Shown here in pieces: positions 7,721 through 33,500 of a stretch of 64,000 nucleotides of DNA. Under the pieces are notes generated by a model. That model saw only the letters and a list, made by a program, of their open reading frames with translations, did not search any database and was not told the DNA's origin. How positions within the stretch are numbered: the stretch's first letter is position 1; every line of letters starts with the position of its first letter. A program made the translations under genes and the position numbers. This DNA comes from Sinohyriopsis cumingii (taxonomy: Eukaryota; Mollusca; Bivalvia; Unionida; Unionidae), in contig CM068827.1 of assembly GCA_028554795.2 (NCBI GenBank), positions 141,757,251 through 141,821,250 of the forward strand, written 5' to 3'.

Positions 7721-7725
7721 AAACT

Positions 7726-16477: not shown

Positions 16478-16825
16478 AGTAGTTAAGTGGGGCACTAGAG
16501 CCTCAATGGGAATTAGCATTACAGAGACCCCTGGGTCACTATAGCCTCAATGGAAATTTAACATGGAGAGAAATCGTGGGTCAATATAGCCTCAAGGGGA
16601 ATTTAACATGGGAAATAGTCTTGGGCCACTATAGCCTCAAGGGGAATTGAATATGGGAAAAAAGTATTGGGCCACTATAGCCTCAAGGGAATTGAACATG
16701 GGATTTTTTTTAAAATTTTTTAAAATTTTTTTAAATTTAAATTTAAATATAAAAAAGGGGTAGGCAATTGAAAGGCTATCTCTTTTCGAGAAATATGGCT
16801 GGCCCTGAAAAGGGCCTTTGGGTTT
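16478..16825 (+). repeat. Left terminal inverted repeat of Polinton copy 2
   Basis: 348 bp matching the reverse complement of 33152-33500. The outer part holds five imperfect tandem units of about 40-45 bp with the core CACTATAGCCTCAAGGGGAA. Next comes an A/T tract of TTTAAATTTAAA type, and the inner part holds a histone-type stem-loop and purine-rich element on the minus strand. Confidence 0.95.
16801..16816 (-). terminator. Histone-type 3' stem-loop in left inverted repeat
   Basis: On the minus strand GGCCCTTTTCAGGGCC: a perfect 6-bp stem with TTTC loop, followed by AGCCA and, 13 nt on, GAAAAGAGATAG. It lies 25 bp past the stop of the minus-strand gene at 16841-17080. Confidence 0.85.
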
Positions 16826-16840
16826 ATGTTAATATTAATA

Positions 16841-17080
16841 TTAACATAGATGGCATCTGTCACATCTTCTTCTTCTTCTTCTTCTTAAACTCCTTCTAAC
16901 TGCCGGTCCATACACAAGTACCCTCTTGAGACATCCTTGTCTTTCTATGTAAACTCTCCTCATCCATTGACTAGTATCTGTCCTATCAACAACAGTCCAC
17001 TTGGACCTGACATACATGAGCATGTCCGTCCTAAACATCATGGAAGACACAAGGGTGGATGACTCAACTGTGGTCCACAT
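16841..17080 (-). CDS. Left-end gene: small Arg-rich protein, function unknown
   Basis: 79 codons reading outward toward the left end. The product has a Met/Thr/Val-rich start and a strongly basic tail (RRSLRRRRRRRCDRCHLC) with CxxC and a further Cys. I recognise no family. A TATA box (CTATAAATAAG on the minus strand, near 17125-17136) lies about 50 bp upstream. The transcript would run into the stem-loop at 16801-16816. The Arg run comes from a (TTC)-type repeat in the plus strand at 16866-16886, so the frame may be partly repeat-driven. It is accepted because promoter and terminator bracket it. Confidence 0.5.
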   Translation of the reverse strand: MWTTVESSTLVSSMMFRTDMLMYVRSKWTVVDRTDTSQWMRRVYIERQGCLKRVLVYGPAVRRSLRRRRRRRCDRCHLC

Positions 17081-17245
17081 CTTGAAGCGACGAGAATAGG
17101 TGAATGAATGCAGTGAACTGCGCTTATTTATAGGTACAGGAAGGATTGAAACGGATTGAATTCATTCACCAATCCGAACACGCGTTACAAAATTCAGTCA
17201 GCTCTCATCCAATCCGAAGAGAGCAGTCTGTGACGTCACGTGGTC

Positions 17246-17258
17246 TATATAGATTCGT
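17246..17258 (+). promoter_or_regulatory. TATA box for Gln-rich gene
   Basis: GTGGTCTATATAGATT about 45-50 bp ahead of the ATG at 17300. It lies in the 220-bp gap between this gene and the divergently read minus-strand gene. Confidence 0.55.
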
Positions 17259-17299
17259 TAGCGCTTGTGTGCAGTCAATCTATGCGACAGTGATTCAAC

Positions 17300-17861
17300 A
17301 TGACGGAAACTCAGAAAACGATCCATTGGGGTGCACCAACAGGGGAGACTGCCCAAGGGAACCCGGACTTACTTTCAGAAGAGGTACATTGGGATTTTGT
17401 GGATTTTCTTACCTCGCAAGAATTTGTTCCGGAACCTTCGTTACCTTCTTCATTACCGCAAGTGGAGAATTTTAGACAGAGACAGAAAGAAGAATTGGAG
17501 AAATTTATGCAACGACAAAAGGAAGCGGAACAAGCTTTTCTCCTACAGCAACAGCAACAGCAACAAGAAGAGGTAAGAAAAAAAACAACAGCAACAACAG
17601 CAAGAAGAAGTAGCAGCAAAGAAACAAGAGGGTGAAAATCAAACGGCTACGGTACTGTTGGACATTTTAGCGGAGTTAAGAAGTCTGAAACAAATGTATC
17701 AGACTTCTTTATCACGACCGAAGAGAATACGACCTTCCCGAGCTAAACACGCCAACCCTGTGACTAAGCCTATCGTACCACCCTTAGTGATTTCAACCCA
17801 ATCATCAGAAGCAGGCCTCGGCCGTGGCAAAGGCTTAAGGCAGTTAAAGTTGATTGGTTAA
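17300..17861 (+). CDS. Left-end Gln-rich coiled-coil protein, frameshifted at an A run
   Basis: Starts MTETQKTIHWGAPTGE. A Gln/Glu/Lys-rich helical segment follows (FRQRQKEELEKFMQRQKEAEQ, then a Gln run). The first frame leaves the protein-like path at an 8-A run (17578-17585). Beyond it the neighbouring frame continues the same Gln/Glu composition and runs to TAA at 17859-17861, passing LLDILAELRSLKQMY. A one-base length change in the A run would explain this; an assembly error is equally possible. AGGTAAGA just before the run also looks like a splice donor, but no acceptor is evident. It ends 26 bp before a histone-type stem-loop. Confidence 0.6.
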
Positions 17862-17886
17862 ACTCACCCCTACACCAAAATAAAAA

Positions 17887-17902
17887 GGCCCTTTTCAGGG
17901 CC
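17887..17902 (+). terminator. Histone-type 3' stem-loop after Gln-rich gene
   Basis: AAAAA then GGCCCTTTTCAGGGCC then ACCCACTT. Stem, loop and 3' ACCCA flank fit the metazoan replication-dependent histone signal (GGYYYU-UHUH-ARRRCC-ACCCA). The purine-rich GAAAAGAGATAG starts 12-13 nt downstream, where the U7 snRNA target normally lies. Confidence 0.9.
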
Positions 17903-18099
17903 ACCCACTTCTCTCGAAAAGAGATAGCCTTTCAATTTGCCAATAACTCAAAAATCAACAAAAAAACAAACCATTTTACCCTTATAGTACATGTCTGTGT
18001 ATGAGTGCGTGAGTGTAGCTTCTTATTTTAAAATCAAAACTCAAAGACACTTACCTTATATCATTCATGTATTCTTTTATCCATTTTTTACAATCCAAT

Positions 18100-18626
18100 T
18101 CACAATTCACCAGAGAACAATTTAATTAAAAGTTCATTGACTTCTTCTTTCTCCTTGTTTAGTCTCTCTGTTTTTTGAATTTCTTCACCGTATTCCTCAT
18201 TTTCTTCCCTTCTTCTTTTCTTCTCCTGTTTCTTTGCTTCTTTTAAATAGAATTGTCTTCTTTCTTCCTCTTCTTCCTCTGAAGAATCCCTCTCTTCTTC
18301 CAAGAATCCCTCTCTTCTTCTGAAGAATCCTTCTTTTCTTCTGACTCCTCTTGTTTCTTTTTTGGGCAATCTGGAGACCAATGTCCTTTTTCTTTACAAT
18401 AATAACAGGTATCTTGACTTTTGTCTTTTTTAGCCCCTGTTTTTTTTCTTTTTTTACGGTCTGGACACTCTGAAGACCAATGCTCTTTCTTCTGACAGAT
18501 ATAGCAAGTATCTTGACTTTTATCTCGAAATGAAGGAGAGTAGTCCGTGGGCTGGTCTGAAGAGAATTTTCTAATGACCCCTCGCAAAGCTCTGACGAAA
18601 CGTTCCATCTGGGTAGTCTCTTCCAT
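18100..18626 (-). CDS. Protein with two CCHC zinc knuckles, frameshifted acidic/basic tail
   Basis: Read right to left from an ATG at 18626 (an earlier in-frame start lies before the likely transcription start). Two knuckles are clear, CYICQKKEHWSSEC and CYYCKEKGHWSPDC (C-x2-C-x4-H-x4-C), the second starting 28 residues after the first, implying single-stranded nucleic acid binding. The frame with the knuckles stops at 18243. The adjacent frame from about 18302 to 18100 is a long Glu/Lys/Arg-rich helix ending LIKLFSGEL. A one-base change inside a duplicated AGAGAGGGATTCTT tract near 18300 would link them. CCHC knuckles are typical of Gag proteins and not part of the usual Polinton set. TATA box GTATATAAAAGGG lies 60-70 bp upstream on the minus strand. 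Confidence 0.7.
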
Positions 18627-18660
18627 CGTTGTGCTTGGCTTGAGAGTGAAATGAATAGTG

Positions 18661-18760
18661 AAAGAACAAGACACACACCCTTTTATATACGCTGGTCTGC
18701 CATGACTATAAATTAGTCTATGGTGTTTACACTTGAGTCATTTGACGTTTTGCACTCAAG
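18661..18760. promoter_or_regulatory. Divergent promoter between CCHC gene and polB
   Basis: Minus strand: GTATATAAAAGGG at about 18680-18692 for the CCHC gene. Plus strand: GACTATAAATTAG at 18703-18715 for polB, 46-58 bp before its ATG. Both are good TATA boxes in a 134-bp gap. Confidence 0.7.
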
Positions 18761-21700
18761 ATGAAACGATCCCATTCATTCGAGAAGAAAGAAGAAGAAG
18801 AAAGTAAGAGGCAGAAACGTGATCTATCGCCTCGTACCAGAGCTGAAATCTTGGCACAAATTCATGCCAGTGATTTTGAAGAGGACATGAGTGAACCAGA
18901 ATTTGAAACCTCTAAACCAAGTTCGTCACCCTTAGTCAACCCTAAAAAATACTATTCCATTCGAGAGACGGAAAAGCGCTCCTCTAGAAAATTTAGAACC
19001 ACGGCTTACACCTACACGGTGAAGTTTAAAGATTTCAAGGCCGACGTACCCTTGGAGAAAGCAGAAGGGTTTATCACCGAGATGTGGGATTCTTTGCTCA
19101 CCGCACTCAAGCGACAATGTCAACCCAAAGAAGACGATCGCTTGACACTATCCATAGATCACGACGGTTTGAAATCCCCTGTTTGGATCGAGTTTAGCAG
19201 ACCCGCAGAACTAACCCCTTCCAAAATCATGGACAAGATTCAACACGTACAACAATCTAATGACCAGTTTGACATCACCGATGGTAAAGCCACACTGAAA
19301 ATGGCTCACGTCTCTCTTCCTCAAGGGACTGGACGCAAAAAGATGTTATTGGTGAACGAGCTTCGCAGCATTAAGCGTAGCCTTGTCCAAATTCACAATC
19401 CTCAAGACCAGATGTGTTTAGCTCGAGCCATCATGGTGGGACGAACCTATGCCAACAAGAACGACACGGCAGAATGGAAAAGAGCCTGGAAAACTATTCG
19501 ACAATCGGACCGAGCCAAACAACGAAACGAAGCAGAACTCCTGTTGCAACAAGCCGGACTGTCCAAAGACACACCCTGTGGCATTCCTGAGATGCAAAAA
19601 TTGCAAGATGCCCTAGCTCCACGCTACACCTTGAAAGTGCACCCTCAAGAAGTGCGCGGGTCTCTGTTGTTTCGAGGCCAAGATTTTAAGGACGGAAAAT
19701 ACATTCATGTCTATCATCACGATGACCATTTCGATACCATTACCAGTATCACCGGATTCCTGGGATATGTTTATTATTGTGAGAAATGTGATTATGGTTA
19801 TAACAATCGAGAGCAACACAAGCATTGTGGATGGAAATGCCCAGGATGTTTGGCCTCTCCACCCTGTCTGAGCGAAGAACCAGTGCCTTGTTCGACTTGT
19901 CTGCGCACGTTTGTCAGCCCTACCTGTTACCAACAACATTTGAAAACACAAGGTTCACAGAAGAAATGTGCTTGTCAACTGCTGAGATTGTGCCCTACCT
20001 GTAGACAAGGCATACTTACCAATAATGCCAAGGCACACGTATGTCGAGGAAAGAAAAAATGTCACATTTGTCACCGCATCGTGGACTTGGAACACCAATG
20101 CTACGTGCAAAAATACCAACCCCCACCAGAGAAAGAGGACGGTCACAAGAAGAAAGGCAATTTCATCTTTTTCGATTTCGAATGCATGCAAGAAACCGGC
20201 ATTCACATTCCTAATTTCTGCGTGGCTCATCGAGCGTGCGAGAAGTGCATTCAAGAACCTATCTTCAGTCATTGCCCTCACTGCAGCAAGATTCCTGGAG
20301 GACGTGAAAAAATCTTTCGGGGACCGAACACATTAGCCGATTTTGCCCCATCGACAAGACGTGGAGCCAAGAGGACATCGAACGTTACGGAGATTGTCAT
20401 CGTCATGCCACGGTGATGGCTCACAATTTCTCCGGATACGATGGACAGTTTCTTTTGAGGTACTATACGGAACATGGCACCGAACGTCCTAAAGTGATTT
20501 TGAACGGAGCCAAAATCATTTTCATGCAAGTGGGACAAGTACAGTTTAAAGATTCGATGAGTTACTTGGCCATGCCTTTGAGCCGAATGCCTAAAACGTT
20601 TGGAATGACAGAAATGGCTAAAGGGTACTTTCCACACTTTTTCAATACGGAAGCCAATCAACATGCTGTTCTACCCCATTTGCCTGAGGCTCACTATTAC
20701 GACCCCGACAACATGCGTACCGAACAACGAGAAGCTTTCTACGCTTGGTACCAAGCTCACGCCTCGGACCCTTTCGACTTTCAGGAAGAAATGTTAAAGT
20801 ATTGTCGTTCCGACGTGGACATTTTACGGCGTTGCTGTGGAAAATTTCGAGAACTGTTCATGGAACACGGAGGGGTCGATCCTTTGAAAGAAGCTTGCAC
20901 CATTGCCAAAGCGTGTTCCTTAGTGTACCGCCAACGATTCATGCCTGAAAACACCGTGGCTGTCATCAGTCCTCAAACGACCAACTATGTCAAGCGTCAA
21001 TACTCGGTCAAAGCCCTACGTTGGTTACATTACTTGTGCGACAAGGAAGACAAATGGATTCAGCATGCCCGCAACGGAGGAGGCGAAAAGACCATCGGAA
21101 CGTATTCGGTCGATGGCTGGGACTTAGAAAACCCCAAGATCGTGTACGAGTTTAACGGTTGCTTATTTCACGGATGTCCCGTCTGTTACCCTGACCGTGA
21201 CACTAAAAATCAGTTTTTACAACGGACCGTGGAAGACTTGTACCAGGACACTTGTCAGCGACGCCTAAAGTTAGAACAGCAAGGATACCAAGTGGTGGAA
21301 ATGTGGGAACACGAGTACGATCACCGTATGAAAACCGATCCCGAGTTTAAACGCCTCGTGGAAAGTTACCAGTTCATGGACCCGTTGAACCCGAGGGATA
21401 GTTTGTACGGAGGAAGGACCAATGCCACCTGTTTGCTGTACCAAGCCGACGAAGAGAAAGGAGAAGAAATCAAATACTTGGACGTGTGTTCGCTGTATCC
21501 CTACGTGTGCAAATATTGTCGCTTTCCCGTAGGGCACCAGCAATTGCTGACGGAACACATCGACCTGAAAAACATTCGACAATACGAAGGCTTGATCAAG
21601 TGCAAAGTTTTGCCTCCCACGAACCTATACCATCCCGTCTTACCTCACCATTGTCAAGGCAAACTGATGTTTCCCTTGTGCCGTACTTGTGCCGAAACGT

Positions 21701-22809
21701 GCAACCAGGACCAACCTTGCCATCACAGCCAGGAAGAACGTGCCTTGACGGTAACCTGGGTCAGCGTGGAATTGTTCAAAGCTCTGGACATGGGATACCA
21801 ACTGTTAGAAGTGTACGAAATTTGCCACTTTCCCAAGACACAACAGTACCACAAGGGTGACCCTACTCAGAAAGGTATTTTCGCCGACTACGTGGATGCC
21901 TTTTTGAAACTGAAACAAGAATCCAGCGGCTATCCTTCCTGGTGTCACACTCCCGAAGACCAAATACAATTCAAAGAGAAATACTACGAACAAGAAGGCA
22001 TCTCTTTAGACCACATCGAAAAAAACGAAGGCAGGCGATCGTTTGCCAAAGTGATGTTAAATTGCTTGTGGGGTAAAATGGCACAACGACCGTGTTTACC
22101 CAAGACGGAATATTTGACAGAACCTTCCCGCTACTTCCAGATGATTCACGACAAAACCAAATACATGAAACACGTGGACGTCGTTCGAGAGGATTTGATC
22201 TTGGTCAATTACGAAGAAGATCTGGACTTTGTACAAGACGACCCTTTTGGAAATGTCATCATTGCGGCTTACGTGACAGCTCATGCTCGCTTAAAATTGT
22301 ACGAAGCTTTAGAACTGTTAGAAGAACGCGTCCTGTACTTTGACACGGACAGTTGCATTTACATCCATCACCCGATTCGACATCACCCTGACATCGAAGG
22401 AGACCGTTTAGGAGCCTGGACAGACGAGCATCCCGACGACAAGATTCTAAGTTTCGTCAGTGGCGGTCCCAAAAATTACGGCTACGAATACCGGGACAAA
22501 CAAGGAGAAGTGCACACGACGTGCAAAGTGAAAGGACTGACTCTGAATCATCGTACCAGTCGAGTGGTCAACTTTGGGGTATTGAAAGAAGCCTTGCAAT
22601 CGGGAGAGGATGGAAACTTTAAAGTGACCACCTATCAACCGAACAAGATTGTACGTTTACCCACTCACCACATCGTCAGTCGACCCTTGGAAAAAGTCTA
22701 TCAAATTGTATACCAGAAGCGAGTGAGACTTCCCAATCACTTTACGTTGCCGTACGGTCACGGCGGTATTGGTCTGTATATAAAAAGGAACCCTAGGCAA
22801 GATCGATAG
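18761..22809 (+). CDS. polB: Protein-primed family B DNA polymerase, split by one frameshift
   Basis: Replicase of the element. First part (18761-20416): a charged N-terminus, a globular region, a Cys/His-rich zinc-binding region (about residues 340-450), then exonuclease I (FIFFDFECMQ, near residue 470). Second part (from about 20345, open to 22809): exonuclease II (AHNFSGYDGQFLLRYY), exonuclease III (YCRSDVDIL), motif A (DVCSLYP), motif B (KVMLNCLWGKMA), motif C (YFDTDS), and the late GGPKNYGYEY block. The frames part at GATTTTGCCCC near 20340; the protein path continues in the other frame 70 bases before that frame's first ATG (20413). Apart from this break all catalytic motifs are present. 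Confidence 0.93.
22773..22786 (+). promoter_or_regulatory. TATA box inside the end of polB
   Basis: CTGTATATAAAAAGGAACC, overlapping the last codons of polB and about 55 bp before the ATG at 22836. The same arrangement, with a TATA box in the tail of the previous gene, recurs at 24020, 25012, 25455 and 27271. Confidence 0.6.
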
Positions 22810-22835
22810 TTCATTGTTCATTGAAGTAACTTACC

Positions 22836-23182: not shown

Positions 23183-23192
23183 AAAAAAACAT

Positions 23193-23225: not shown

Positions 23226-23271
23226 CTCTTGTCTTGTTTGTTTTCGTGTCACAAGTGACATTTCTCACACT

Positions 23272-24015
23272 ATGGCTACCTCTGCTGTCTCTGCTCCCTC
23301 TTCCTCTACTGTCAAAGTCATCGACGAACACTTAGATCGTGCCAGTTGTGAGACTTTGTATCTTCGCCATCCCTTTAACATGCTCATTGCTGGACCTAGC
23401 GGTTCAGGCAAAACCGAATTCGTCAAACGTTTGATCGAACATAAACATCATTTGATCGATCGACCCCCTCAACGAATCGTGTGGTGTTACAAAGAGTGGC
23501 AATCGGCGTACAGCCTCTTGCGAGAAAGTCAAGGCGATTCTATCGTGTTTGTGGAAGGCATTCCTAAAGAAGACGACGGTATCGTCTCTGACTCCCGTCA
23601 AACCCATTTGGTCATTTTCGACGACATGTTAGGAGAAGACGAAGAAGAAATTAAACTGTGGTTCACGCGCAAAGGGCATCATCGTAATGCCAGTGTCGTT
23701 TACATCACCCAAAATTTGTTTCAACAAAGTAAAGCCCATCGCACCATCAGTCTCAATGCGCATTACGTGGTCTTGTTTAAAAGCCCTCGAGATAAATCGC
23801 AAGTGCAAGTCTTAGCCAAACAGTTAGGAACGCCTTGGCTGACTCAGGCGTACGACGATGCCACTCAAACGCCACACGCCTATTTACTCGTCGATTTGAA
23901 ACCTACGACTCCCGAGGATTTGCGATTTCGTACCCACTTGTTTCACCACTGGTGCCAAGACGGAGGGCCTGTCCTGTACACGTCTCCGTCCTCGACTTCA
24001 TTTCACTCCACATAA
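23272..24015 (+). CDS. DNA-packaging ATPase (FtsK/HerA-like, A32 type)
   Basis: 247 residues, complete. A Walker A P-loop GPSGSGKTEFVKRLIEH lies near residue 41 and Walker B HLVIFDDMLGED near residue 114; a later polar block (VVYITQNLFQQS) fits the sensor position of this superfamily. In Polintons, virophages and NCLDVs this family moves genomic DNA into the capsid. The start is chosen at the first ATG after the TATA box. The product ends in a Ser/Thr-rich tail. The frame is undamaged, unlike copy 1, which lost Walker A. Confidence 0.93.
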   Translation: MATSAVSAPSSSTVKVIDEHLDRASCETLYLRHPFNMLIAGPSGSGKTEFVKRLIEHKHHLIDRPPQRIVWCYKEWQSAYSLLRESQGDSIVFVEGIPKEDDGIVSDSRQTHLVIFDDMLGEDEEEIKLWFTRKGHHRNASVVYITQNLFQQSKAHRTISLNAHYVVLFKSPRDKSQVQVLAKQLGTPWLTQAYDDATQTPHAYLLVDLKPTTPEDLRFRTHLFHHWCQDGGPVLYTSPSSTSFHST

Positions 24016-25508: not shown

Positions 25509-26153
25509 ATGGAAGGACGAAAACTAGCTCTAGTGCCTTACAAACGATGGATGGAATACCATCGGTGGCAAGAACAACACACCCCGCATTTACCTCCCAA
25601 TCCCCATTTGAGCGAGATGTCCCAGTTACAACACGAACTGCAGTCCTTGATGGATCGCCAAGATTTGTCCGAAACAGAAAAATCGCAAAAGTACGGTCAA
25701 CTCTTGCAACGACTGCAACTCTTTCACCAGAAAGCTTTAGACGAAACAGCTGTACCCACTCTGAAAGATTTTAAGACCTTGATGAAAAGTCCAGCACCAT
25801 CACCAGTACCAGTACCAGTACCACCAGTACCAGTGACCAAGACAGAAAAAGGAAAAGAAGAAGAAGAAGAAGGGTTTCAAACTCCACCAGAAAAAGTACG
25901 CAAGTTAACAACACCACCTACCTCCAGAACTGGATGGATTAAAAAGATGATGGCCACCCCTTCTTCATCACAAGAGAAAAAGAAAGTGAAGACAGAAGTG
26001 AAGACAGAAGTGAAACAAGAACCGATATCCCCCGCTCAGACATCCTCCTCCTCTTCAACACCTATTGCCGGTCGCACACGCAAAGCATTGCAATCCAAGA
26101 AAATACCCCAAGAGAAAAAGAGTAGCATCCTCCAAGAGTGGGTGCCTTATTAA
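25509..26153 (+). CDS. Conserved Polinton coiled-coil protein ending in WVPY
   Basis: 214 residues. It opens with a short conserved block (RKLALVPYKRWMEYHRWQ), then a helical coiled coil (LQHELQSLMDRQDLSETEKS onward), a Pro/Val-rich linker, an acidic run, and a basic Ser-rich tail with VKTEVKTEVKQEP repeats, closing in LQEWVPY. This arrangement is known from many animal Polintons next to the preceding small protein. Probably structural; the role is unproven. TATA-like GATAAAAAGGCC lies at 25455. Confidence 0.72.
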   Translation: MEGRKLALVPYKRWMEYHRWQEQHTPHLPPNPHLSEMSQLQHELQSLMDRQDLSETEKSQKYGQLLQRLQLFHQKALDETAVPTLKDFKTLMKSPAPSPVPVPVPPVPVTKTEKGKEEEEEGFQTPPEKVRKLTTPPTSRTGWIKKMMATPSSSQEKKKVKTEVKTEVKQEPISPAQTSSSSSTPIAGRTRKALQSKKIPQEKKSSILQEWVPY

Positions 26154-26176
26154 CACACCAACCAACACAAAAAAAA

Positions 26177-27286
26177 ATGGAAAAAGTCTTAGCCAGCATT
26201 TACTACGATCCCTCCCATCCTGCAGGTTACGCAGGAGTTCAAAAATTGTATCGTGCTGCCAAAACGCAACTGAAAAGTCTCCGTTTACCTCAAGTGCAAC
26301 GATGGTTACAAGAACAAGCTACCTACACTTTACACAAACCCATTCGACGCAAGTTTGCCAGAAGTCGCACCCGAGTGGAAGGCATCGATCATCAATGGCA
26401 AGCCGATTTAGCCGATGTCTCTCATTTGACCAGCTACAATCGTGGCTACAAATATTTGTTTTGTGTCATCGACGTCTTTTCCAAATTTGCTTGGGTCGTA
26501 CCCTTGACTTCCAAATCGAGCAGCGAGTTAGTGCGAGCCCTGCAACGAGTGTTGAAACAAAGCGGTCGTCACCCTCTTCGATGGCAAACGGACAAAGACA
26601 CCGAATTTCTGAACCAAGCTTTCCAAAAAGAATTAAAGAAACGTGACATTCATTTTTTTACCACCGAGAATCCCGAAACCAAAGCCAGCATCGTGGAACG
26701 TTTTCAACGCACTTTGAAAGAACGCATGTGGAAATATTTTACGCATCACCACACTCTGAAGTACATCGACATCTTACCGCACCTGGTGCAAGCGTACAAC
26801 CAATCTTACCATCGAAGCATCGGACGTGCCCCACAAGACGTGACTCCCGACAACGAAGTGCTGGTGTTCGAGCGTCTGTTTGGTACGTCCCCGACGAGGG
26901 CTGTCCCCAAGAAAAGTGGAGAGTTGGCCGTAGGAGATTGGGTGCGCATTGGCAAAGCCAAACGCACTTTTGACAAAGGTTACTTACCTAACTGGACGAC
27001 CGAACTGTTTCGCGTCACTGGACGAGTGCATGGCCGTCATCCTGCCGTCTATAAATTGGAAGACATGAACGGAGAAGTGCTCAAAGGAACGTTTTATTTG
27101 CCCGAGTTACAACGTGTCACCAAAAAAGAAGACGACGTGTACGACATCGAAAGCATTCTCGAACGCAGAACCCGTAAAGTGGGCAAACGACGTGTCAAAG
27201 AAGTCAAAGTACGTAGGAAAGGATATCCGCCCAGTTTTGATTCTTGGATCGACGCTTCGCAAGTCATCGACTATAAAAAGAAGTGA
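26177..27286 (+). CDS. int: Polinton DDE integrase with chromodomain
   Basis: 369 residues from ATG 26177, the first ATG after an A run. It has an N-terminal helical region without a clear zinc finger, then the catalytic core: Asp in QADLADV, Asp in QTDKDTEF, and Glu in ASIVERFQRTLKERM, 34 residues after the second Asp. A strand-rich region follows (VGDWVRIGKAKRTFDKGYLP), then a C-terminal chromodomain-like block (YDIESILERR to RRKGYPPSFDSWIDASQV). The enzyme inserts the element and makes the 6-bp duplication seen at both ends. The frame is intact. Confidence 0.94.
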   Translation: MEKVLASIYYDPSHPAGYAGVQKLYRAAKTQLKSLRLPQVQRWLQEQATYTLHKPIRRKFARSRTRVEGIDHQWQADLADVSHLTSYNRGYKYLFCVIDVFSKFAWVVPLTSKSSSELVRALQRVLKQSGRHPLRWQTDKDTEFLNQAFQKELKKRDIHFFTTENPETKASIVERFQRTLKERMWKYFTHHHTLKYIDILPHLVQAYNQSYHRSIGRAPQDVTPDNEVLVFERLFGTSPTRAVPKKSGELAVGDWVRIGKAKRTFDKGYLPNWTTELFRVTGRVHGRHPAVYKLEDMNGEVLKGTFYLPELQRVTKKEDDVYDIESILERRTRKVGKRRVKEVKVRRKGYPPSFDSWIDASQVIDYKKK

Positions 27287-27291
27287 CTATC

Positions 27292-27705
27292 ATGCCTTTT
27301 CACACAGACGCAGCTACGTCGACCACTCCTCCTTCCCCTAGTTCTTCTGTGCAAGATTTACAAAAACAACCCTTGTGGGTGTGGTGTGGAGAACGTGTGC
27401 CTAAAACGCAAATCGTCTTTTTCTGCCAAATCTTCGTGGTGTATTGTGTCATCGGGGCAGCCATCGCCAATTTGAGTTTGCAACAAGGAGACAAACAATT
27501 GTGGACCATTTTATTGAGCAGTTGCATCGGTTACCTGCTTCCTAATCCCTCCCTGAAATTCACCTCGAACGGGAACCACGGGAACCTTGTGTCCAGTGCC
27601 AGTGCCAGTCACCACTCCAACCACAACCAGAACCCCATTTTGGGCGGAGACACGCCTCTGACGTCCACTAACCCCTCGGACAGCCACAGAACTCTGGAAT
27701 TATGA
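27292..27705 (+). CDS. Two-helix membrane protein conserved in animal Polintons
   Basis: 137 residues. After a short Ser/Thr-rich start comes LWVWCGERVPKTQIVFF and two hydrophobic segments (IFVVYCVIGAAIANLSL and LWTILLSSCIGYLLPNP), then a polar Ser/Asn/His-rich tail. The hairpin layout and the SSCIGYLLPNP signature recur at this place in Polintons of other animals. It starts 6 bp after the integrase stop, with CTATAAAAAG at 27271 as possible promoter, and its TGA overlaps the ATG of the next gene. Confidence 0.75.
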   Translation: MPFHTDAATSTTPPSPSSSVQDLQKQPLWVWCGERVPKTQIVFFCQIFVVYCVIGAAIANLSLQQGDKQLWTILLSSCIGYLLPNPSLKFTSNGNHGNLVSSASASHHSNHNQNPILGGDTPLTSTNPSDSHRTLEL

Positions 27706-28624: not shown

Positions 28625-28631
28625 GTAAGTC

Positions 28632-29048
28632 ATGTATCCAGTGTACCGAGGGGTTGCTCGACAGCGAGGACACGGTTTAGGAGACATGTTAAAATCGGCC
28701 TTTCGTTCGGTGGCCCCGGTGTTGAAACCGATGGTGACACGCGGATTGCACGCCTTGAAAGATGCGGTACTGACGCAAGGCAAAGAATTTCTCCAAAATG
28801 TCATCATCTACAAACAAAACCCTAAAGAAGCCTTCATGAGGGCAGGCAAAAATGTCTTGCTGCAAACGGGTAAAGACATTTTAGGCCAACGAGAAACACC
28901 TATAAATGCCCTGCACGCTACCAAGTCAGGCATTCAGCAAGGACAAGGCAGAAAGAGACGACGAAGAAAACACCCTTTCACCAGACTTCAAGCGAGAAAG
29001 GCCAAGAAAAGAAGAACCGTTCGAGACTTAGACGTTTTCGATTATTGA
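28632..29048 (+). CDS. Small basic virion-type protein
   Basis: 138 residues opening MYPVYRGVARQRGHGLGDML, then an amphipathic helix region (FRSVAPVLKPMVTRGLHALK), a Gln/Lys-rich middle, an Arg/Lys cluster (GRKRRRRKHP) and the closing RDLDVFDY. It lies between minor and major capsid genes, separated from the former by 8 bp. The Gly/Arg opening and position match small proteins of other animal Polintons, sometimes likened to adenovirus core or cement proteins; that comparison is inference. Confidence 0.72.
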   Translation: MYPVYRGVARQRGHGLGDMLKSAFRSVAPVLKPMVTRGLHALKDAVLTQGKEFLQNVIIYKQNPKEAFMRAGKNVLLQTGKDILGQRETPINALHATKSGIQQGQGRKRRRRKHPFTRLQARKAKKRRTVRDLDVFDY

Positions 29049-29064
29049 GAAAAGAGACAAAAAA

Positions 29065-30378
29065 ATGATGCACCGAGAATCTTGCGCTTGTTCCAAGACG
29101 GAACTGGATCTGTTTGCCATGCCCCCCACGATGATGACGATGCAAGAATCCCAGTGGGTGGAATTTCACCCCGTCTCCTCACTGTCCGATTCCGCTCCCA
29201 TCGAGTTTGAAATCAAAGGACAGCCCGAAGATTACATCGATCTGAATAGCAGTTGCTTGTACCTGAAAGTCAAAATTCTAGATAAGACTGGAGGTGCTAT
29301 AGACGATGAAGCAGTAGCTCCCGTCAACAATTTCATGCATTCCTTGTTCAGTGGAGTGGACTTGTACTTGAACAACAAACTGGTCAGTAGCAGCATGGAT
29401 ACTTACCCTTATCGTGCCTACCTGGAAAATCTCTTGACGTACGGAATAGATGCCAAGAACACTCATCTCAATGCCTGTGTGGTATGGGAAGCTGACGAAC
29501 CTACCAAGTTTGAAATATTGGAAACTGATGAAAAGAAAGACAACAATGATGGATTTCTAGAACGAAGAAAGAGAATCACGGGAGCCGACACAAGTTTAGA
29601 ACTGATGGATCGTTTGCATTTGGACATGTGGTTGCAAGAAAAGTATTTGCTGAACGGGGTGGATGTTCGCCTGAGACTGAATCGTAGCAGTGCCGCTTTC
29701 CATTTGATGGCTGATAGTGACGGTTACAAAACCAAAATCCTAGAAGCCAGACTCTACGTACGCCGTGTGGAAGTGTTACCTAAAGTGGGAAACGACATGA
29801 GTCAGACGTTGAGCAGAACGACTGCCAAGTATCCCATACGACGCGTGGAAGTGAAAACCTTCACCATTCCCAAGGGACAGCGATCCATGATCGAAGATCA
29901 TCTGTTCCAAGGACAGTTACCCAAACGTTTGATCGTTGGTATCGTCGAGAATACAGCCTTCAACGGAGCTGCCGAAAAAAATTCTTTCTACTTTCAACAC
30001 TTTGGCGCGTCCAAAATCGAAATCAGTCGCGATGGCAAGACCTTGTGTACCCGACCTTTCGAACCTGACTTTACCAAGAAGAATTACTTGAGATCGTACT
30101 TGTCCCTGTACGAAGCCACCGGACAGTTAGGAACCAATACCAGTCACGGTATTACGTACGAGGATTATGCAGGAGGCTACGCTTTGTGGACTTTCGATTT
30201 CACTCCAGACCAAGGCAGCGACGAGGGACATTTCCACCCTATAAAATCCGGCCAGATTCGTGTGGAAATTCAGTTTAAAGACCGAGACCCTGATGAAACG
30301 GTGAACGTCATCCTGTATGCAGAATTCGATAATACCATAGAAATCAACAGTTTGAGAGAAGTCATCCTAGATTACTAG
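29065..30378 (+). CDS. Major capsid protein (double jelly-roll, hexon-like)
   Basis: 437 residues, intact; a second ATG directly follows the first. The sequence has the strand-rich pattern of Polinton double-jelly-roll capsid proteins: FEIKGQPEDYIDLNSSCLYL and NNFMHSLFSGVDLYLNNKLV in the first half, YLRSYLSLYEATGQ and YALWTFDFTPDQG in the second, and the closing VILYAEFDNTIEINSLREV. It should form trimeric hexon-like capsomers. Ordinary AATAAA signals follow at 30487 and 30585. Its intactness contrasts with the lost protease. Confidence 0.93.
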   Translation: MMHRESCACSKTELDLFAMPPTMMTMQESQWVEFHPVSSLSDSAPIEFEIKGQPEDYIDLNSSCLYLKVKILDKTGGAIDDEAVAPVNNFMHSLFSGVDLYLNNKLVSSSMDTYPYRAYLENLLTYGIDAKNTHLNACVVWEADEPTKFEILETDEKKDNNDGFLERRKRITGADTSLELMDRLHLDMWLQEKYLLNGVDVRLRLNRSSAAFHLMADSDGYKTKILEARLYVRRVEVLPKVGNDMSQTLSRTTAKYPIRRVEVKTFTIPKGQRSMIEDHLFQGQLPKRLIVGIVENTAFNGAAEKNSFYFQHFGASKIEISRDGKTLCTRPFEPDFTKKNYLRSYLSLYEATGQLGTNTSHGITYEDYAGGYALWTFDFTPDQGSDEGHFHPIKSGQIRVEIQFKDRDPDETVNVILYAEFDNTIEINSLREVILDY

Positions 30379-30383
30379 AAACC

Positions 30384-30470
30384 ATGGAAGACTGTTATCC
30401 CTCTTTACCTAGTGGAGAAACTTTTAGTGTTGGATTATTGTTAAAAAATGTTAGAGTTGTTGTTGTTTAG
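30384..30470 (+). pseudogene. Remnant start of the deleted protease gene
   Basis: 28 codons from an ATG six bases after the capsid stop, at the same place as the protease start in copy 1 (7726). The first dozen codons align (both have xxCYxSLxSG), then the sequence jumps to the 3' untranslated type sequence that in copy 1 lies after the protease. About 1 kb is missing relative to copy 1. Confidence 0.75.
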
Positions 30471-30612
30471 TGTTAAGTGATTTTTGAATAAAAAATGTTG
30501 TGTTTTGAAAAAATTGTTTGATGTTATATTGTTGGATTATTGTTAAAAATGTTAGAGTTGTTGTTTAGTGTTAAGTGATTTTTGAATAAAAAATGTTGTG
30601 TTTTGAAAAAAA
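30429..30612 (+). repeat. Two tandem units of about 100 bp with AATAAA
   Basis: Units start GTTGGATTATTG at 30429 and 30531 and each includes AATAAAAAATGTTGTGTTTTG, so the poly(A) signal region of the capsid transcript is duplicated. Confidence 0.85.
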
Positions 30613-30717
30613 TGCCTTTGTCTTTTGTTTAGCTATAAGAATGTTGGATTGATGCTCTTTCATTTCTTACTATCCCTCTCATGACACTCACTAAACGTTG
30701 CGACTCAAAAACCGTGT

Positions 30718-30755
30718 GGGGGATGTTTTCCTTCACGTCCGCGCTTTGACTTTAA
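30718..30755 (+). promoter_or_regulatory. End-gene promoter motif 1
   Basis: GGGGGATGTTTTCCTTCACG then TCCGCGCTTTGACTTTAA. It lies 55 bp before the ATG at 30810. Here the TATA-like end is TTTAA. Confidence 0.75.
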
Positions 30756-30809
30756 GAACCGGGTTGTTTCCAGTCTAACCATCCATTGTCGACTCATCCT
30801 CCTACGAAG

Positions 30810-31169
30810 ATGTGCTCCAAACTAGCTAAGCTCAACGAAGCCTACGTGAATTTGCATAGGGTCAGACACAGTCTGATACCGAAGCCAGAAGAAATAGAGA
30901 ATGTGAGAATGTTAAAAATCACTGAAGACCTGATAGAAGAGCTCTTCAGAGAAGAAATGAACAGGGAAAAAGAAGAATGGATAGAGAAGTACAGACTTCA
31001 GAGACAGCAGCAACAGCAGCAACAACAACAACAGCAGCAGCAACCTGAAGCTGACAGAGGCTTTGTCGATTGTCGTATCGACACCAAAGAGTTCTTCTTC
31101 TCTTTTCGAAGAAGCAGACCTATCGCCAGAAAGTCTATCCTCAGAGGACATCGCATTCTTAGAAACTAA
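30810..31169 (+). CDS. Right-end gene 1: Gln-rich coiled-coil protein
   Basis: 119 residues. A helical N-terminal half (KLAKLNEAYVNLHRVRHSLI then KITEDLIEELFREEMNREKE), a run of about 13 Gln, then a basic tail (FFFSFRRSRPIARKSILRGH). No family recognised. It is bracketed by the shared promoter motif and a histone-type stem-loop 28 bp after the stop. The layout resembles the left-end Gln-rich protein at 17300 and the next two genes, which suggests an old gene family. Confidence 0.65.
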   Translation: MCSKLAKLNEAYVNLHRVRHSLIPKPEEIENVRMLKITEDLIEELFREEMNREKEEWIEKYRLQRQQQQQQQQQQQQQPEADRGFVDCRIDTKEFFFSFRRSRPIARKSILRGHRILRN

Positions 31170-31197
31170 AAAAGAATGCCATAGCAAACAAAAAAAC

Positions 31198-31213
31198 AGC
31201 CCTTTTCAGGGCT
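31198..31213 (+). terminator. Histone-type 3' stem-loop after right-end gene 1
   Basis: AAAC then AGCCCTTTTCAGGGCT then ACCCAATACT. Perfect 6-bp stem, TTTC loop and ACCCA flank; the outer pair is A-T. GAAAAGAAATAAC follows as a purine-rich element. Confidence 0.88.
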
Positions 31214-31581
31214 ACCCAATACTCTAGAAAAGAAATAACAATCCATTTGCCAATGTGTGTAGGTAGAGTAGTGTGAAAATAAACACTAACTCTTTTTTAA
31301 AAAAATGTGAGGGTATGTGTTTGTGTGTTTGTGTTTGTAAGTGGTTAAGTAAGTTGGTATGGATAGCAGATTAAAATGATGTCTTTTTTTTTTTGGTGTT
31401 TGAGGTGTAAATTTGGGGTTAGATTGGATTGAATTGCGTATGTGGATAGTCTATTGAAGTGATTTATAAAAATTTTTAAAATAGTGATGGGTAGCATAAA
31501 AAAGTGAGTGAGTGTTTCTTTTAGGTCCGCGCGTTGTTTCTTTTGGTCATGATCTAGGTAAGATCAATTTTATGTTTCTTA
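31214..31581 (+). other. Spacer after stem-loop 2
   Basis: TG-rich non-coding spacer. The first 110 bp (to about 31325) recur almost unchanged after stem-loop 3 (32089-32200). A truncated promoter-motif copy (TTAGGTCCGCGCGTTG) lies near 31521, followed by GGTCATGATCTAGGTAAGATC, which recurs before 32663. Confidence 0.7.
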
Positions 31582-31620
31582 GGGGGATGTTTTCCTTCAC
31601 GTCCGCGCTTTCACTATAAA
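31582..31620 (+). promoter_or_regulatory. End-gene promoter motif 2 with TATA box
   Basis: GGGGGATGTTTTCCTTCACG then TCCGCGCTTTCACTATAAA, 53 bp before the ATG at 31673. Confidence 0.8.
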
Positions 31621-31672
31621 TTGAAACTCGCTGGGCAATCTAGCTACCCTTGTTGATTGATCAACACCAAAA

Positions 31673-32044
31673 ATGAGCACGAGACTGTCTATACTGTTGG
31701 AACTTCATGTGCATCTGGAATATGCCAGGCGCCTGTTGAATGAACTGGCCGCGGAAGCCATTGTGGAAGACGGAAGGATGAGAGAGGAGGAGGAAAGAAG
31801 AAATAAAGAAGAGGAGAGAAGATATAAAGAAGAAGAGGAAAGAAGATACAAAGAGGAGGAGAGAAGATACAAAGAAGAGGAGGAGGAAAAGGAGAGAAGA
31901 AGAAAAAATTTCAGAATCCCAGAAACCGAAAATTGGGATTCTGAAGCCACATATCCTGCCTCTGCTCTCTCCCCCAAAAAGGTAAAAAGTAACTGGGGGA
32001 CAAGATGTGTATGTGGCGCCAGGCCTGGAAGGTGCCACCATTAA
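31673..32044 (+). CDS. Right-end gene 2: Glu/Arg/Lys-rich helical protein
   Basis: 123 residues. The start is a leucine-spaced helix (LSILLELHVHLEYARRLLNEL), then repeats of ERRYKEEE forming a highly charged helix, then a polar tail with FRIPETENWDSEATYP and a Cys-containing end (CVCGARPGRC). It lies between promoter motif 2 and stem-loop 3. The repeat part is low complexity and matches nothing I know. The N-terminal Leu spacing is similar to right-end genes 1 and 3. Confidence 0.6.
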   Translation: MSTRLSILLELHVHLEYARRLLNELAAEAIVEDGRMREEEERRNKEEERRYKEEEERRYKEEERRYKEEEEEKERRRKNFRIPETENWDSEATYPASALSPKKVKSNWGTRCVCGARPGRCHH

Positions 32045-32072
32045 CCAGGTGTCCATGAAGTTTCAAAAAAAC

Positions 32073-32088
32073 AGCCCTTTTCAGGGCT
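32073..32088 (+). terminator. Histone-type 3' stem-loop after right-end gene 2
   Basis: AAAC then AGCCCTTTTCAGGGCT then ACCCAATACT, identical to the element at 31198 with the same GAAAAGAAATAAC downstream. It lies 28 bp after the stop codon. Confidence 0.88.
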
Positions 32089-32303
32089 ACCCAATACTCT
32101 AGAAAAGAAATAACGATCGATTTGCCAATGTGTGTAGGTAGAGTAGTGTGATTATAAACACTAACTCTTTTTGAAAAAAATGTGAGGGTATGTGTTTGTG
32201 TGATGGTGTTTGTAAGAGCTAAGGTATGGTTGTGTGAATAGTAGATTATGGGTTTCTTTATTGTTTATTTTGTGTGTTTGTTTTTGTGTTTGTGTTTGTA
32301 ACT

Positions 32304-32566
32304 GCTCACGTACGATTGTGTGGATAGTAGATTATGGATTTTGTTTATTGTTTCTTAGCGTATGTGGAGAGTATAGTTTGGGTTTTGTAACCGCTCACGT
32401 ACGATTGTGTGGATAGTAGATTATGGATTTTGTTTATTGTTTCTTAGCGTATGTGGAGAGTATAGTTTGGGTTTTGTAACCGCTCACGTACGATTGTGTG
32501 GATAGTAGATTATGGATTTTGTTTATTGTTTCTTAGCGTATGTGGAGAGTATAGTTTGAGTTTTAT
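32304..32566 (+). repeat. Three tandem 89-bp units
   Basis: Each unit starts GCTCACGTACGATTGTGTGG (at 32304, 32393, 32482) and includes TTATGGATTTTGTTTATTG. They lie in the spacer between stem-loop 3 and the third end gene. Units are nearly identical, so the amplification is recent. Confidence 0.92.
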
Positions 32567-32586
32567 TATATGAAATGAGAAAAGTA

Positions 32587-32700
32587 GGGGGATGTTTTCC
32601 TTCACGTCCGCGCGTTGCTGTTTCTTTGGTCATGATCTAGGTAAGATCAATTTTATGTTTTAGGGGGATGTTTTCCTTCACGTCCGCGCTTTCACTATAA
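32587..32700 (+). promoter_or_regulatory. End-gene promoter motif 3, double copy
   Basis: A first copy at 32587-32617 lacks the TATA end. A second at 32663-32700 ends TCACTATAA and lies 42 bp before the ATG at 32742. Between them is GGTCATGATCTAGGTAAGATC. Confidence 0.8.
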
Positions 32701-32741
32701 GAACCCACAGTATTCGTCGTTCAAACCATTCTACAAAGAAG

Positions 32742-33002
32742 ATGGCTTCTAACCAAATGGACAAAATACAAACATTGCAAGACGTTTTAGACAACTTAGG
32801 AATGATGGAACAGATGTTAATAAGACTCGTTGAAGACCATTATTCCTATAGTCCCCATCGTGTAAAGATGGAAATTAATAACTTAAAAAAGGTAAAGGAC
32901 AAGATTAGTGGTGACATGAAAGAGATAAAGGAGGAGAAGGAGGATGAAGAGGAAAGAATAAGAATAAGCAAATGGAACGAAAAAATTGAAAAAGAAGAAT
33001 AA
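32742..33002 (+). CDS. Right-end gene 3: charged helical protein
   Basis: 86 residues: a helical start (DKIQTLQDVLDNLGMMEQML), HYSYSPHRVKMEINNLKK, then a Glu/Lys-rich helix to TAA at 33000-33002. The same composition continues past this stop to a TAA near 33097, so the original protein may have been longer. It reads outward, and the stem-loop in the right inverted repeat lies 159 bp past the stop. No family recognised. Confidence 0.6.
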   Translation: MASNQMDKIQTLQDVLDNLGMMEQMLIRLVEDHYSYSPHRVKMEINNLKKVKDKISGDMKEIKEEKEDEEERIRISKWNEKIEKEE

Positions 33003-33151
33003 AATGAGAAGAGGAAGAAAGAAGAGGAGGAAGAGAAGAAGAAAGAAGAGCAGGAGAAAAAAAAAGAAAGAGAAGAAGAGAAAGAGTGTAGGAGATAAAA
33101 TAAGAACTTGGTGGAGAAAAAGAAGAAATTAGAAGCAGAAGAAGAAGAAGA

Positions 33152-33500
33152 AAACCCAAAGGCCCTTTTCAGGGCCAGCCATATTTCTCGAAAAGAGATA
33201 GCCTTTCAATTGCCTACCCCTTTTTTAAATTTAAATTTAAATTTAAAAAAATTTAAACAAATTTTTAAAAAAAATCCCATGTTCAATTCCCTTGAGGCTA
33301 TAGTGGCCCAAGACTTTTTTCCCATATTCAATTCCCCTTGAGGCTATAGTGGCCCAAGACTATTTCCCATGTTAAATTCCCCTTGAGGCTATATTGACCC
33401 ACGATTTTTCTCCATGTTAAATTTCCATTGAGGCTATAGTGACCCAGGGGTCTCTGTAATGCTAATTCCCATTGAGGCTCTAGTGCCCCACTTAACTACT
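33152..33500 (-). repeat. Right terminal inverted repeat of Polinton copy 2
   Basis: 349 bp, reverse complement of 16478-16825 with few differences. It holds the stem-loop at its inner edge, then an A/T tract and five imperfect units of the TTGAGGCTATAGTG type toward the end. Confidence 0.95.
33161..33176 (+). terminator. Histone-type 3' stem-loop in right inverted repeat
   Basis: AAA then GGCCCTTTTCAGGGCC then AGCCATATTT, with GAAAAGAGATAG starting 13 nt after the stem. Same element as at 16801-16816 on the other strand. Confidence 0.87.

What the first reader, a model, noticed from the sequence alone, without database searches (positions are those of the whole stretch)
16801..33176. Polinton end genes finish in histone-type mRNA 3' stem-loops
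Five 16-nt elements (16801-16816 minus; 17887-17902, 31198-31213, 32073-32088 and 33161-33176 plus) read GGCCCTTTTCAGGGCC or AGCCCTTTTCAGGGCT. All have a perfect 6-bp stem and TTTC loop. Three are followed by the exact ACCCA flank of metazoan replication-dependent histone mRNAs and two by AGCCA. All have a purine-rich GAAAAGARAT stretch 12-14 nt downstream, where U7 snRNA binds histone pre-mRNA. Each lies past the stop of a terminal gene (about 25-30 bp in four cases, 159 bp for the last), and none lies after the core genes, some of which carry AATAAA. The inference is that a Polinton expresses its end genes as non-polyadenylated mRNAs bound by stem-loop binding protein and timed to host S phase. 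I know of no description of this for Polintons.
Basis: partly seen in the sequence, partly recalled or inferred. Interest (0 to 1): 0.88.

Follow-up and report, generated by a model that had tools for sequence, protein, structure and literature searches.

The report
Polinton end genes built like histone genes
The short genes at both ends of a virus-like mobile element in a mollusc-like genome end in the RNA signal that animals are known to use only on cell-cycle histone messages, and three of them also begin with a piece of the host's own histone promoters, which suggests that the element times these genes to the host's DNA replication.

Summary
Confirmed and extended. All five 16-nt elements lie where stated. 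Rfam's histone 3' stem-loop family (RF00032) matches all five, three above its gathering score; 100 shuffles of the window gave none. They sit in a 17-kb Polinton with TIRs and a 6-bp target duplication. The decisive comparison is with the host's own histone repeat: its five stem-loops are followed 13 or 14 nt later by GAAAAG, the probable U7 site, and each window copy has GAAAAG at 13 nt. Genome-wide there are 47,752 stem-loop+GAAAAG modules and 30,558 promoter boxes; reversed patterns give 0. Of 56 boxes on one chromosome stretch, 41 are followed by a same-sense module, none by an opposite-sense one. Stem pairs covary. Most likely these are histone-type transcription units: transcribed like histone genes, cut by U7 snRNP, not polyadenylated. 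No transcript was seen, U7 was not found, other species could not be tested.

The parts
16472..16477 (.). Left 6-bp target site duplication GGTACA (right copy 33501-33506)
   Evidence: Read directly from the flanks printed
16478..16825 (.). Left terminal inverted repeat, beginning AGTAGTTAAG
   Evidence: Inverted repeats I1 and I2, 94-97% complementary; ends read
33152..33500 (.). Right terminal inverted repeat, ending CTTAACTACT
16841..17080 (-). Left outermost gene, 79 aa, arginine-rich C terminus, open in this copy
   Evidence: Translation; no Pfam match; related ORFs in 37 of 48 fetched loci, mean dN/mean dS about 0.12 over 549 non-independent pairs with dS 0.15-2
16801..16816 (-). Histone-type stem-loop GGCCCTTTTCAGGGCC, 24 nt after the stop of the minus gene, in the TIR
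   Evidence: RF00032 35.6 bits
16782..16787 (-). GAAAAG, 13 nt after the stem (probable histone downstream element core)
17300..17861 (+). Second left gene; the first frame ends at 17635 in this copy; intact 186-190 aa copies exist elsewhere (L013, L054)
   Evidence: homologues P0121-P0140
17887..17902 (+). Histone-type stem-loop GGCCCTTTTCAGGGCC + ACCCA
   Evidence: RF00032 38.4 bits, E 1e-7
17916..17921 (+). GAAAAG, 13 nt after the stem
30722..30745 (+). Promoter box A GATGTTTTCCTTCACGTCCGCGCT upstream of R1
   Evidence: One mismatch to host H2B upstream, two to H1 upstream
30810..31169 (+). Right-end gene R1, 119 aa
31198..31213 (+). Histone-type stem-loop AGCCCTTTTCAGGGCT + ACCCA (A-U in place of outer G-C)
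   Evidence: RF00032 31.0 bits, below gathering; covariation
31227..31232 (+). GAAAAG inside TCTAGAAAAGA, an 11-mer also found after host H3 and H2B stems
31515..31535 (+). Promoter box B TTTCTTTTAGGTCCGCGCGTT, identical to host H4 upstream
   Evidence: blastn-short 21 of 21 nt
31586..31609 (+). Promoter box A upstream of R2, followed by TATA
31673..32044 (+). Right-end gene R2, 123 aa
32073..32088 (+). Histone-type stem-loop AGCCCTTTTCAGGGCT + ACCCA
   Evidence: RF00032 31.0 bits, below gathering
32102..32107 (+). GAAAAG, 13 nt after the stem
32591..32614 (+). Promoter box A, first copy upstream of R3 (one mismatch to the others)
32667..32690 (+). Promoter box A, second copy upstream of R3, followed by TATA
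32742..33002 (+). Right-end gene R3, 86 aa, shorter than homologues in L015 and L029
33161..33176 (+). Histone-type stem-loop GGCCCTTTTCAGGGCC + AGCCA in the right TIR
   Evidence: RF00032 35.6 bits
33190..33195 (+). GAAAAG, 13 nt after the stem
18761..22809 (+). DNA polymerase B region, in two overlapping ORFs (18761-20416, 20413-22809)
   Evidence: PF03175 8e-41 on the second ORF, no Pfam match on the first
23272..24015 (+). Packaging ATPase
   Evidence: PF04665 7e-8
26138..27286 (+). Integrase with a chromodomain-like C terminus
   Evidence: PF00665 1e-12; PF00385 below its cut-off
29065..30378 (+). Probable major capsid protein (assigned by position and recalled homology), core gene without a stem-loop
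   Evidence: 746 homologues, 120 listed; the listed ones with organism names are mostly bivalve F54H12.2-like proteins

Best explanation
The element is a Polinton (Maverick) whose five short end genes are built as replication-dependent histone-type transcription units. Shown here: the 3' module is A-rich flank, 6-bp stem with TTTC loop, 13 nt, GAAAAG; the host histone genes have the same kind of module; and the three right-end genes have a host-histone-type promoter box (box A, usually followed by a TATA-like word and then the ATG about 60 nt from the box). Inferred: host histone transcription factors, perhaps a HINFP/NPAT-like pair, drive the right-end genes in S phase. SLBP binds the stem and U7 snRNP pairs with the GAAAAG region, so the pre-mRNA is cut about 5 nt after the stem and gets no poly(A) tail. 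The mRNAs are then translated and degraded together with histone mRNAs. This would make the end-gene proteins when the nucleus is replicating DNA, the condition that an element with its own DNA polymerase needs. The left pair uses the same 3' end with a different, divergent promoter. The modules are most simply derived from host histone genes and spread by duplication.
For: Rfam: five of five sites match RF00032, three above gathering. Host comparison: five of five host histone genes in the unit read have the stem with GAAAAG at 13 (H3, H4, H2B) or 14 (H2A, H1) nt; window copies have it at 13. In the 48 fetched Polinton loci, 87 of 93 stem matches have GAAAAG at 13 nt; of 47 stems (looser stem pattern) that were not the reason the locus was fetched, 43 do. 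Genome-wide 47,752 modules against 0 for the reversed pattern. Places 1-42 of the 100 listed for the ACCCA pattern (13,744 in all) were fetched as 40 loci and 40 of 40 match the element's ends by blastn (L033 by the TIR alone). Promoter: box A (up to 5 mismatches) in 8 of 8 loci with right-end genes and in 0 of the other 40; 30,558 exact copies genome-wide against 0 control; box B 21 of 21 nt identical to the H4 upstream region. Stem-loop-blind test: 41 of 56 box A sites have an exact same-sense module 200-1300 nt downstream, 0 of 56 an opposite-sense one, random mean 0.8, maximum 6. Covariation on 23 distinct modules: 3 of 6 pairs changed on both sides (3 of 500 shuffles reach that), 0 of 500 shuffles reach the covariation score. 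Conservation among 35 left ends (the window and 34 loci fetched for the other stem-loop): mean pairwise distance 0.032 in the TIR stem-loop, 0.000 in its 5' flank, 0.019 in GAAAAG, against 0.11-0.19 in neighbouring spacers, 0.275 in the outer TIR and 0.319 at third codon positions of the adjacent gene.
Against: No RNA evidence of any kind. No convincing U7 snRNA: the best RF00066 match is 29.3 bits, below the gathering score of 34, and the pattern candidates that I read were repeats, coding sequence or unlike U7. The left gene pair shares no 12-mer with the host histone unit upstream. Two stem-loop genes also have AATAAA or ATTAAA near the stop (17300 before the stem, 30810 after it), so polyadenylation is possible as well. 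Conservation over the whole left end is less striking: the TIR stem-loop window ranks 18 of 590 in the TIR and minus-gene region but only 245 of 1470 overall. Of 34 unselected TIR stem-loops, 27 are identical to the window's, 31 keep all six pairs and 3 break one. In L014 the R2 stem has one mismatch, in L024 the R2 loop is TTCC. By my simple ORF rule only 13 of 22 right-end genes stop 18-38 nt before a stem. Polinton fragments from other hosts (L005-L009) show no RF00032 match, but their ends are not recognisable. 15 of 56 box A sites lack an exact module downstream.
Confidence: 0.83

Rival explanations
1. The stem-loops act on DNA: palindromes at or near the ends used by integrase, by terminal-protein-primed replication or for packaging.
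For: Two of the five are inside the TIRs, and the element has integrase and polymerase B genes.
Against: Three are outside the TIRs, after internal genes. All five are in gene sense, and none of 56 box A sites has an opposite-sense module downstream. Asymmetric flanks and the 13-nt-distant GAAAAG are conserved and match the host's histone mRNA signals, which a DNA hairpin would not need.
Confidence: 0.06
2. The histone-type ends are inert remnants of a captured histone gene or UTR, carried along by amplification of young copies.
For: The five modules in the window are alignable copies, and 34 of 36 left ends are 84-99% alike to the window in the gene region.
Against: The TIR is only 69-86% alike to the window's (39 loci with 150 nt or more aligned) while the stem and GAAAAG stay nearly fixed. 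The stem has compensatory changes. The minus gene appears to be under purifying selection. Promoter and 3' end are kept together around differing coding cassettes.
Confidence: 0.06
3. A hairpin-directed polyadenylation system like that of mimiviruses, which terminate transcripts at palindromes.
For: Polintons are kin of virophages (recalled), and mimivirus mRNAs end at hairpin-forming palindromes (abstract start of PMC4402537 in the listing).
Against: Giant-virus hairpins are described as A/T-rich (passage of PMC8557863) and cleaved by a viral enzyme (listing); here the stem is short and G/C-rich, matches RF00032, and the host histone genes share its downstream element.
Confidence: 0.03
4. The 3' ends are histone-type, but expression is not tied to S phase; the stem-loop mainly gives intronless transcripts export and stability, for example in the germ line.
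For: The left pair lacks the histone promoter words.
Against: Right-end genes carry host histone promoter sequences.
Confidence: 0.15

Closest known systems
Replication-dependent histone genes of animals (RF00032 stem-loop, SLBP, U7 snRNP)
   Same: Stem, loop, A-rich 5' flank, short gap from stop to stem, GAAAAG 13-14 nt downstream as in the host histone genes, short ORFs, TATA-like words; right-end promoters share 21-24-nt sequences with H2B, H1 and H4.
   Different: The encoded proteins are not recognisable histones; they lie in a mobile element with thousands of dispersed copies. [quoted passage not shown]
Polintons / Mavericks
   Same: PolB, rve integrase, packaging ATPase, probable MCP, TIRs beginning (AGT)2, 6-bp TSD; end motif and TSD fit the passages of PMC8097293.
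   Different: Histone-type promoter and 3' end on end genes. 'Histone' and 'polyadenylation' occur 0 times in the main text of PMC8097293. The window copy has no match to the protease-like ORF of copy 2.
Giant viruses that encode histones (medusavirus)
   Same: A DNA virus that uses histone biology.
   Different: There the virus carries the histone proteins (passages of PMC8557863); here the element carries the histone genes' control signals without the proteins.
Hairpin-directed mRNA ends of Mimiviridae
   Same: Hairpins after stop codons.
   Different: Different sequence, composition and machinery (listing; passage).

Membership tests
Polinton/Maverick | DNA polymerase B of the organellar/viral type | tested here: met
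   PF03175 8.2e-41; in two overlapping ORFs in this copy
Polinton/Maverick | Retroviral-type integrase | tested here: met
   PF00665 1.2e-12
Polinton/Maverick | Packaging ATPase | tested here: met
   PF04665 7.2e-8
Polinton/Maverick | Major capsid protein | tested here: inconclusive
   No Pfam match; 746 homologues, named ones F54H12.2-like; identification as MCP is recalled, no fold was made
Polinton/Maverick | Adenain-like protease (typical; may be lost in single copies) | tested here: inconclusive
   No tblastn match in the window element to the protease-like ORF of copy 2, an ORF that I named by eye and that has no Pfam protease match. The partial copy 2 in the same window and fragments L005, L007, L008 have it, so the family has it and this copy seems to have lost it
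Polinton/Maverick | TIRs and 5-6-bp TSD | tested here: met
   compare passages
Histone-type mRNA 3' end | RF00032 stem-loop | tested here: met
   Three of five above gathering, two at 31.0 bits
Histone-type mRNA 3' end | Downstream element at the host's spacing | tested here: met
   GAAAAG at 13 nt; host 13 or 14 nt
Histone-type mRNA 3' end | Pairing of the downstream element with host U7 snRNA | tested here: inconclusive
   U7 not identified; last pattern search did not complete
Histone-type mRNA 3' end | Non-polyadenylated RNA ending just after the stem | not testable with these tools
   No RNA data
Histone-type mRNA 3' end | SLBP binding | not testable with these tools
   Needs an RNA-protein experiment
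Replication-dependent histone gene | Encodes a histone | tested here: not met
   No histone domain up to E 1 in the five end proteins (the second left protein taken from L054). Only weak, sub-cut-off matches, e.g. CAF1A_acidic 0.0022 for R2
Replication-dependent histone gene | Shared host histone promoter elements | tested here: met
   Right-end genes only; the left pair shares no 12-mer

The most novel reading that the evidence does not exclude
Polintons of this host are complete histone-gene mimics at their right end: they took both promoter and 3' processing signals from host histone genes, are recruited to the histone transcription and processing machinery, and express exchangeable small proteins in step with DNA replication. 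With about 48,000 modules in the assembly they may also draw SLBP or U7 snRNP away from histone mRNA. This would be the first non-histone class of animal mRNAs with histone-type ends.
Probability: 0.6. Interest if true: 0.96.

Novelty: new variant of a known kind. Interest (0 to 1): 0.92.

Why it matters
Histone mRNAs are described as the only animal protein-coding mRNAs ending in a stem-loop instead of poly(A) (abstract of PMC6303110). A mobile element that uses both ends of the histone gene programme would show how a virus-like element can tie its genes to the cell cycle without its own timer, and would offer natural non-histone reporters for SLBP and U7 rules in molluscs. It also suggests why poly(A)-selected RNA data could miss these genes.

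Tried and rejected
U7 snRNA: RF00066 in the own genome gave three sub-threshold candidates (65 of 801,960 first-look candidates scored; sequences). L019 has a possible 3' hairpin but weak complementarity to GAAAAG by eye; not claimed. The pattern TCTTTN{0,6}AATTTGTCTWG gave 259 hits against 98 for the reversed control, 100 of them listed. Of 17 small regions read, L062-L065 and L069 look like one repeat family, L070-L074 like Polinton integrase coding sequence, and the other seven did not look like U7; all judged by eye.

Other species: viral contigs gave no relative of the capsid protein, polymerase or left protein and no match to stem + 13-14 nt + GAAAAG. Four contigs match a 19-nt stem pattern but have no RF00032 match at gathering; taken as chance. 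Genome contigs gave six contaminant contigs: none of the six has an RF00032 match at gathering; L005-L009 have none up to E 10 (L010 left out for size); L005, L006 and L009 show no inverted repeats of 40 nt or more; none of the six has box A.

Print: searches for Polinton with histone/stem-loop, histone stem-loop with virus, transposable element or SLBP, bivalve Polintons and Polinton expression (3 of 3, 19 of 19, 20 of 27, 20 of 57, 20 of 65, 0 of 0 and 15 of 49 hits listed) showed no paper describing this in the listed titles or abstract starts; open-licence PMC papers only. The HINFP site (CGTCCGC) is recalled; one search supports only that HiNF-P binds H4 promoters and recruits NPAT. Searches for the site word and for a mollusc H4 box listed no paper that bears on it.

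Not answered by the genome server: the capsid search in the own genome, so the number of elements is not counted, and pattern GGCTCTTTTMAGAGCCA.

Weak test: dN/dS of the left gene rests on 4 of 276 pairs.

Full report
1. The element. The window lies in a 2.9-Gb, 1138-contig animal genome (G000:C4:141757251-141821250). The capsid candidate's best organism-named homologue is from the bivalve Mercenaria (52% identity), and most organism-named ones in the 120 rows listed are bivalve, so the host is probably a mollusc; I did not identify it. The element runs from 16478 to 33500, with TIRs of about 350 bp and GGTACA on both sides. It has polymerase B, packaging ATPase and integrase by Pfam and a probable capsid protein. 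TIR ends AGTAGT...ACTACT and the 6-bp TSD fit the description of vertebrate Mavericks (passages of PMC8097293). This copy looks damaged: the polymerase region is in two overlapping ORFs, the 17300 gene loses frame, R3 is short and there is no match to the protease-like ORF of copy 2. That second, partial copy matches the element over 2-9060 and stops around the start of the right-end genes, keeping a variant of box A at 9036.

2. The observation. The five stem-loops are real and lie 3' of five end genes in the sense of each gene. RF00032 finds all five, three above its gathering score. GAAAAG begins 13 nt after each stem. 100 shuffles give none. The elements at 16801 and 33161 are the two TIR copies of one sequence, and all five modules are related by duplication.

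3. The host's own histone genes. A Pfam core-histone search found a tandem histone repeat of about 8.3 kb, at C14:13.1 Mb and on many small contigs (150 of 662 candidates scored). One unit (L089) holds H3, H4, H2B, H2A and H1 (the five named by eye), each followed by an RF00032 match above gathering. Host stems are GGCCCTTTTNAGGGCC (H1: GGTCCTTTTCAGGACC). After 13 nt (H3, H4, H2B) or 14 nt (H2A, H1) comes GAAAAG. TCTAGAAAAGA after H3 and H2B is identical to that after the Polinton's R1 and R2 stems. The Polinton thus carries this host's version of the histone signal, not only a general one. That GAAAAG is the U7 site is inferred from position and conservation; U7 itself was not found.

4. The promoter. 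Comparing the whole window with the histone unit (blastn-short, E up to 0.5) gives, besides the stem-loops, three kinds of promoter match: box A GATGTTTTCCTTCACGTCCGCGCT upstream of R1, R2 and R3 (R3 twice, one copy with a further mismatch), one mismatch from H2B upstream and two from H1 upstream; box B TTTCTTTTAGGTCCGCGCGTT upstream of R2, identical over 21 nt to H4 upstream; and a box A variant in the second copy. Other matches in that list are a histone H3 tail fragment near 10925 and three short words at E 0.46. Inside the element GTCCGC occurs only at these right-end boxes. The core CGTCCGC resembles the HINFP binding site as I recall it; a review says that HiNF-P binds H4 promoters and recruits NPAT (passages of PMC5706932). 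Ten right ends were read (the window and nine in eight loci), with 22 genes. In 17 of 22 the ATG lies 51-68 nt after the nearest box A, usually behind a TATA-like word; in 13 of 22 the ORF found by my simple rule stops 18-38 nt before a stem. In the other nine the rule found a short, long or late-starting frame, or the stem is degenerate (L011 both genes, L014 R2, L016 R2, L018 R3, L024 R2, L029 one R3, L037 R3 and the window's R3). The coding cassette of the last gene differs between copies while its ends stay. Box A (up to 5 mismatches) was in 8 of 8 loci with right-end genes and 0 of 40 others, box B exactly in 5 of the 8 (some loci are cut off there).

5. Genome-wide. The exact stem with ACCCA occurs 13,744 times, reversed pattern 0. 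Places 1-42 of the 100 listed, fetched as 40 loci, match Polinton ends in 40 of 40 cases. The eight best RF00032 hits kept as loci, out of 75 scored, do so too. Stem + 13 nt + GAAAAG occurs 47,752 times and box A 30,558 times, reversed patterns 0. On C1:34,140-3,823,594, the stretch covered by both listings, 41 of 56 box A sites have an exact same-sense module 200-1300 nt downstream; 0 of 56 have an opposite-sense one; 2000 random placements average 0.8 with a maximum of 6. This test does not select on the stem-loop. I did not check that every genome-wide match is in a Polinton; some belong to the host histone repeats.

6. Selection. In 35 aligned left ends (the window and 34 loci fetched because of the other, internal stem-loop), mean pairwise distance is 0.032 in the TIR stem-loop, 0.000 in the five bases 5' of it and 0.019 in GAAAAG, against 0.186 and 0.111 in the two spacers, 0.155 past GAAAAG, 0.146 between stop and stem, 0.275 in the outer TIR and 0.319 at third codon positions of the neighbouring gene. 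Against this: the stem-loop window ranks 18 of 590 in that region but 245 of 1470 over the whole left end, because the promoter and left ORF are also little diverged. Of the 34 TIR stems, 27 equal the window's, 31 keep all six pairs, 3 break one. On 23 distinct modules including five host ones, chosen by hand to include the variants, 96.4% of pair cells are standard, 3 of 6 pairs show two-sided changes (outer A-U in five rows, U-A in L057, U-A in host H1), and 0 of 500 shuffles reach the covariation score; slid controls pair 65% at most. The minus gene has mean dN over mean dS of about 0.12 in 549 of 703 non-independent pairs; the left gene gave only 4 of 276 usable pairs (0.29).

7. Mechanism. 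The best reading is that the end genes are expressed as histone-type messages. Steps shown: signals, host match, sense, spacing, promoter match, conservation. Steps inferred: S-phase transcription, SLBP and U7 use, absence of poly(A), co-degradation. The DNA-level rival does not explain sense, GAAAAG spacing or host matching; the inert-remnant rival does not explain conservation and covariation; giant-virus hairpins are of another kind. The least settled point is timing for the left pair, whose upstream region shares no 12-mer with the host histone unit.

8. Novelty. [quoted passage not shown] Searches listed no paper describing this for Polintons, viruses or transposons; they cover open-licence PMC papers only, not all hits were listed, and I read passages of four papers, none whole.

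Noticed in passing
window 10925-11010 +: A short ORF beginning MARTKQKSTGGTAPRKHLASKAARKSA (translated by eye), a degenerate histone H3 N-terminal tail, preceded by a TATA-like CATATAAAAG, upstream of what may be a retroelement. 23 nt match the host H3 gene with one mismatch.
   Followed up: no
window 2-9060 +: A second, partial Polinton copy (73-88% alike over most of it; 68% in the last piece) with a protease-like ORF at 7971-8627 (named by eye) that has no match in the main element; it breaks off around the right-end promoter.
   Followed up: partly
window 30424-30498: The second copy's stretch 7766-8827, which includes the protease-like ORF, has no counterpart at this point of the main element; a 58-nt direct repeat (30459-30516, 30557-30614) lies there.
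   Followed up: partly
L011, L014, L015, L016, L018, L024, L029, L037 right ends: The coding part of the last right-end gene falls into different-looking types (MASNHL..., MTQVSV..., MVAVTE...) under the same promoter and 3' end, as if cassettes were exchanged.
   Followed up: no
window 17081-17299: The divergent promoter of the two left genes has CCAATCC twice and TATA-like words but no histone box; it may be a different class of promoter with the same 3' ends.
   Followed up: no
L054:4540 +: A stem-loop GGCCC..GGGCC with ACTCG and GAAAAG about 1 kb beyond a Polinton end; possibly the end of a neighbouring old element.
   Followed up: partly
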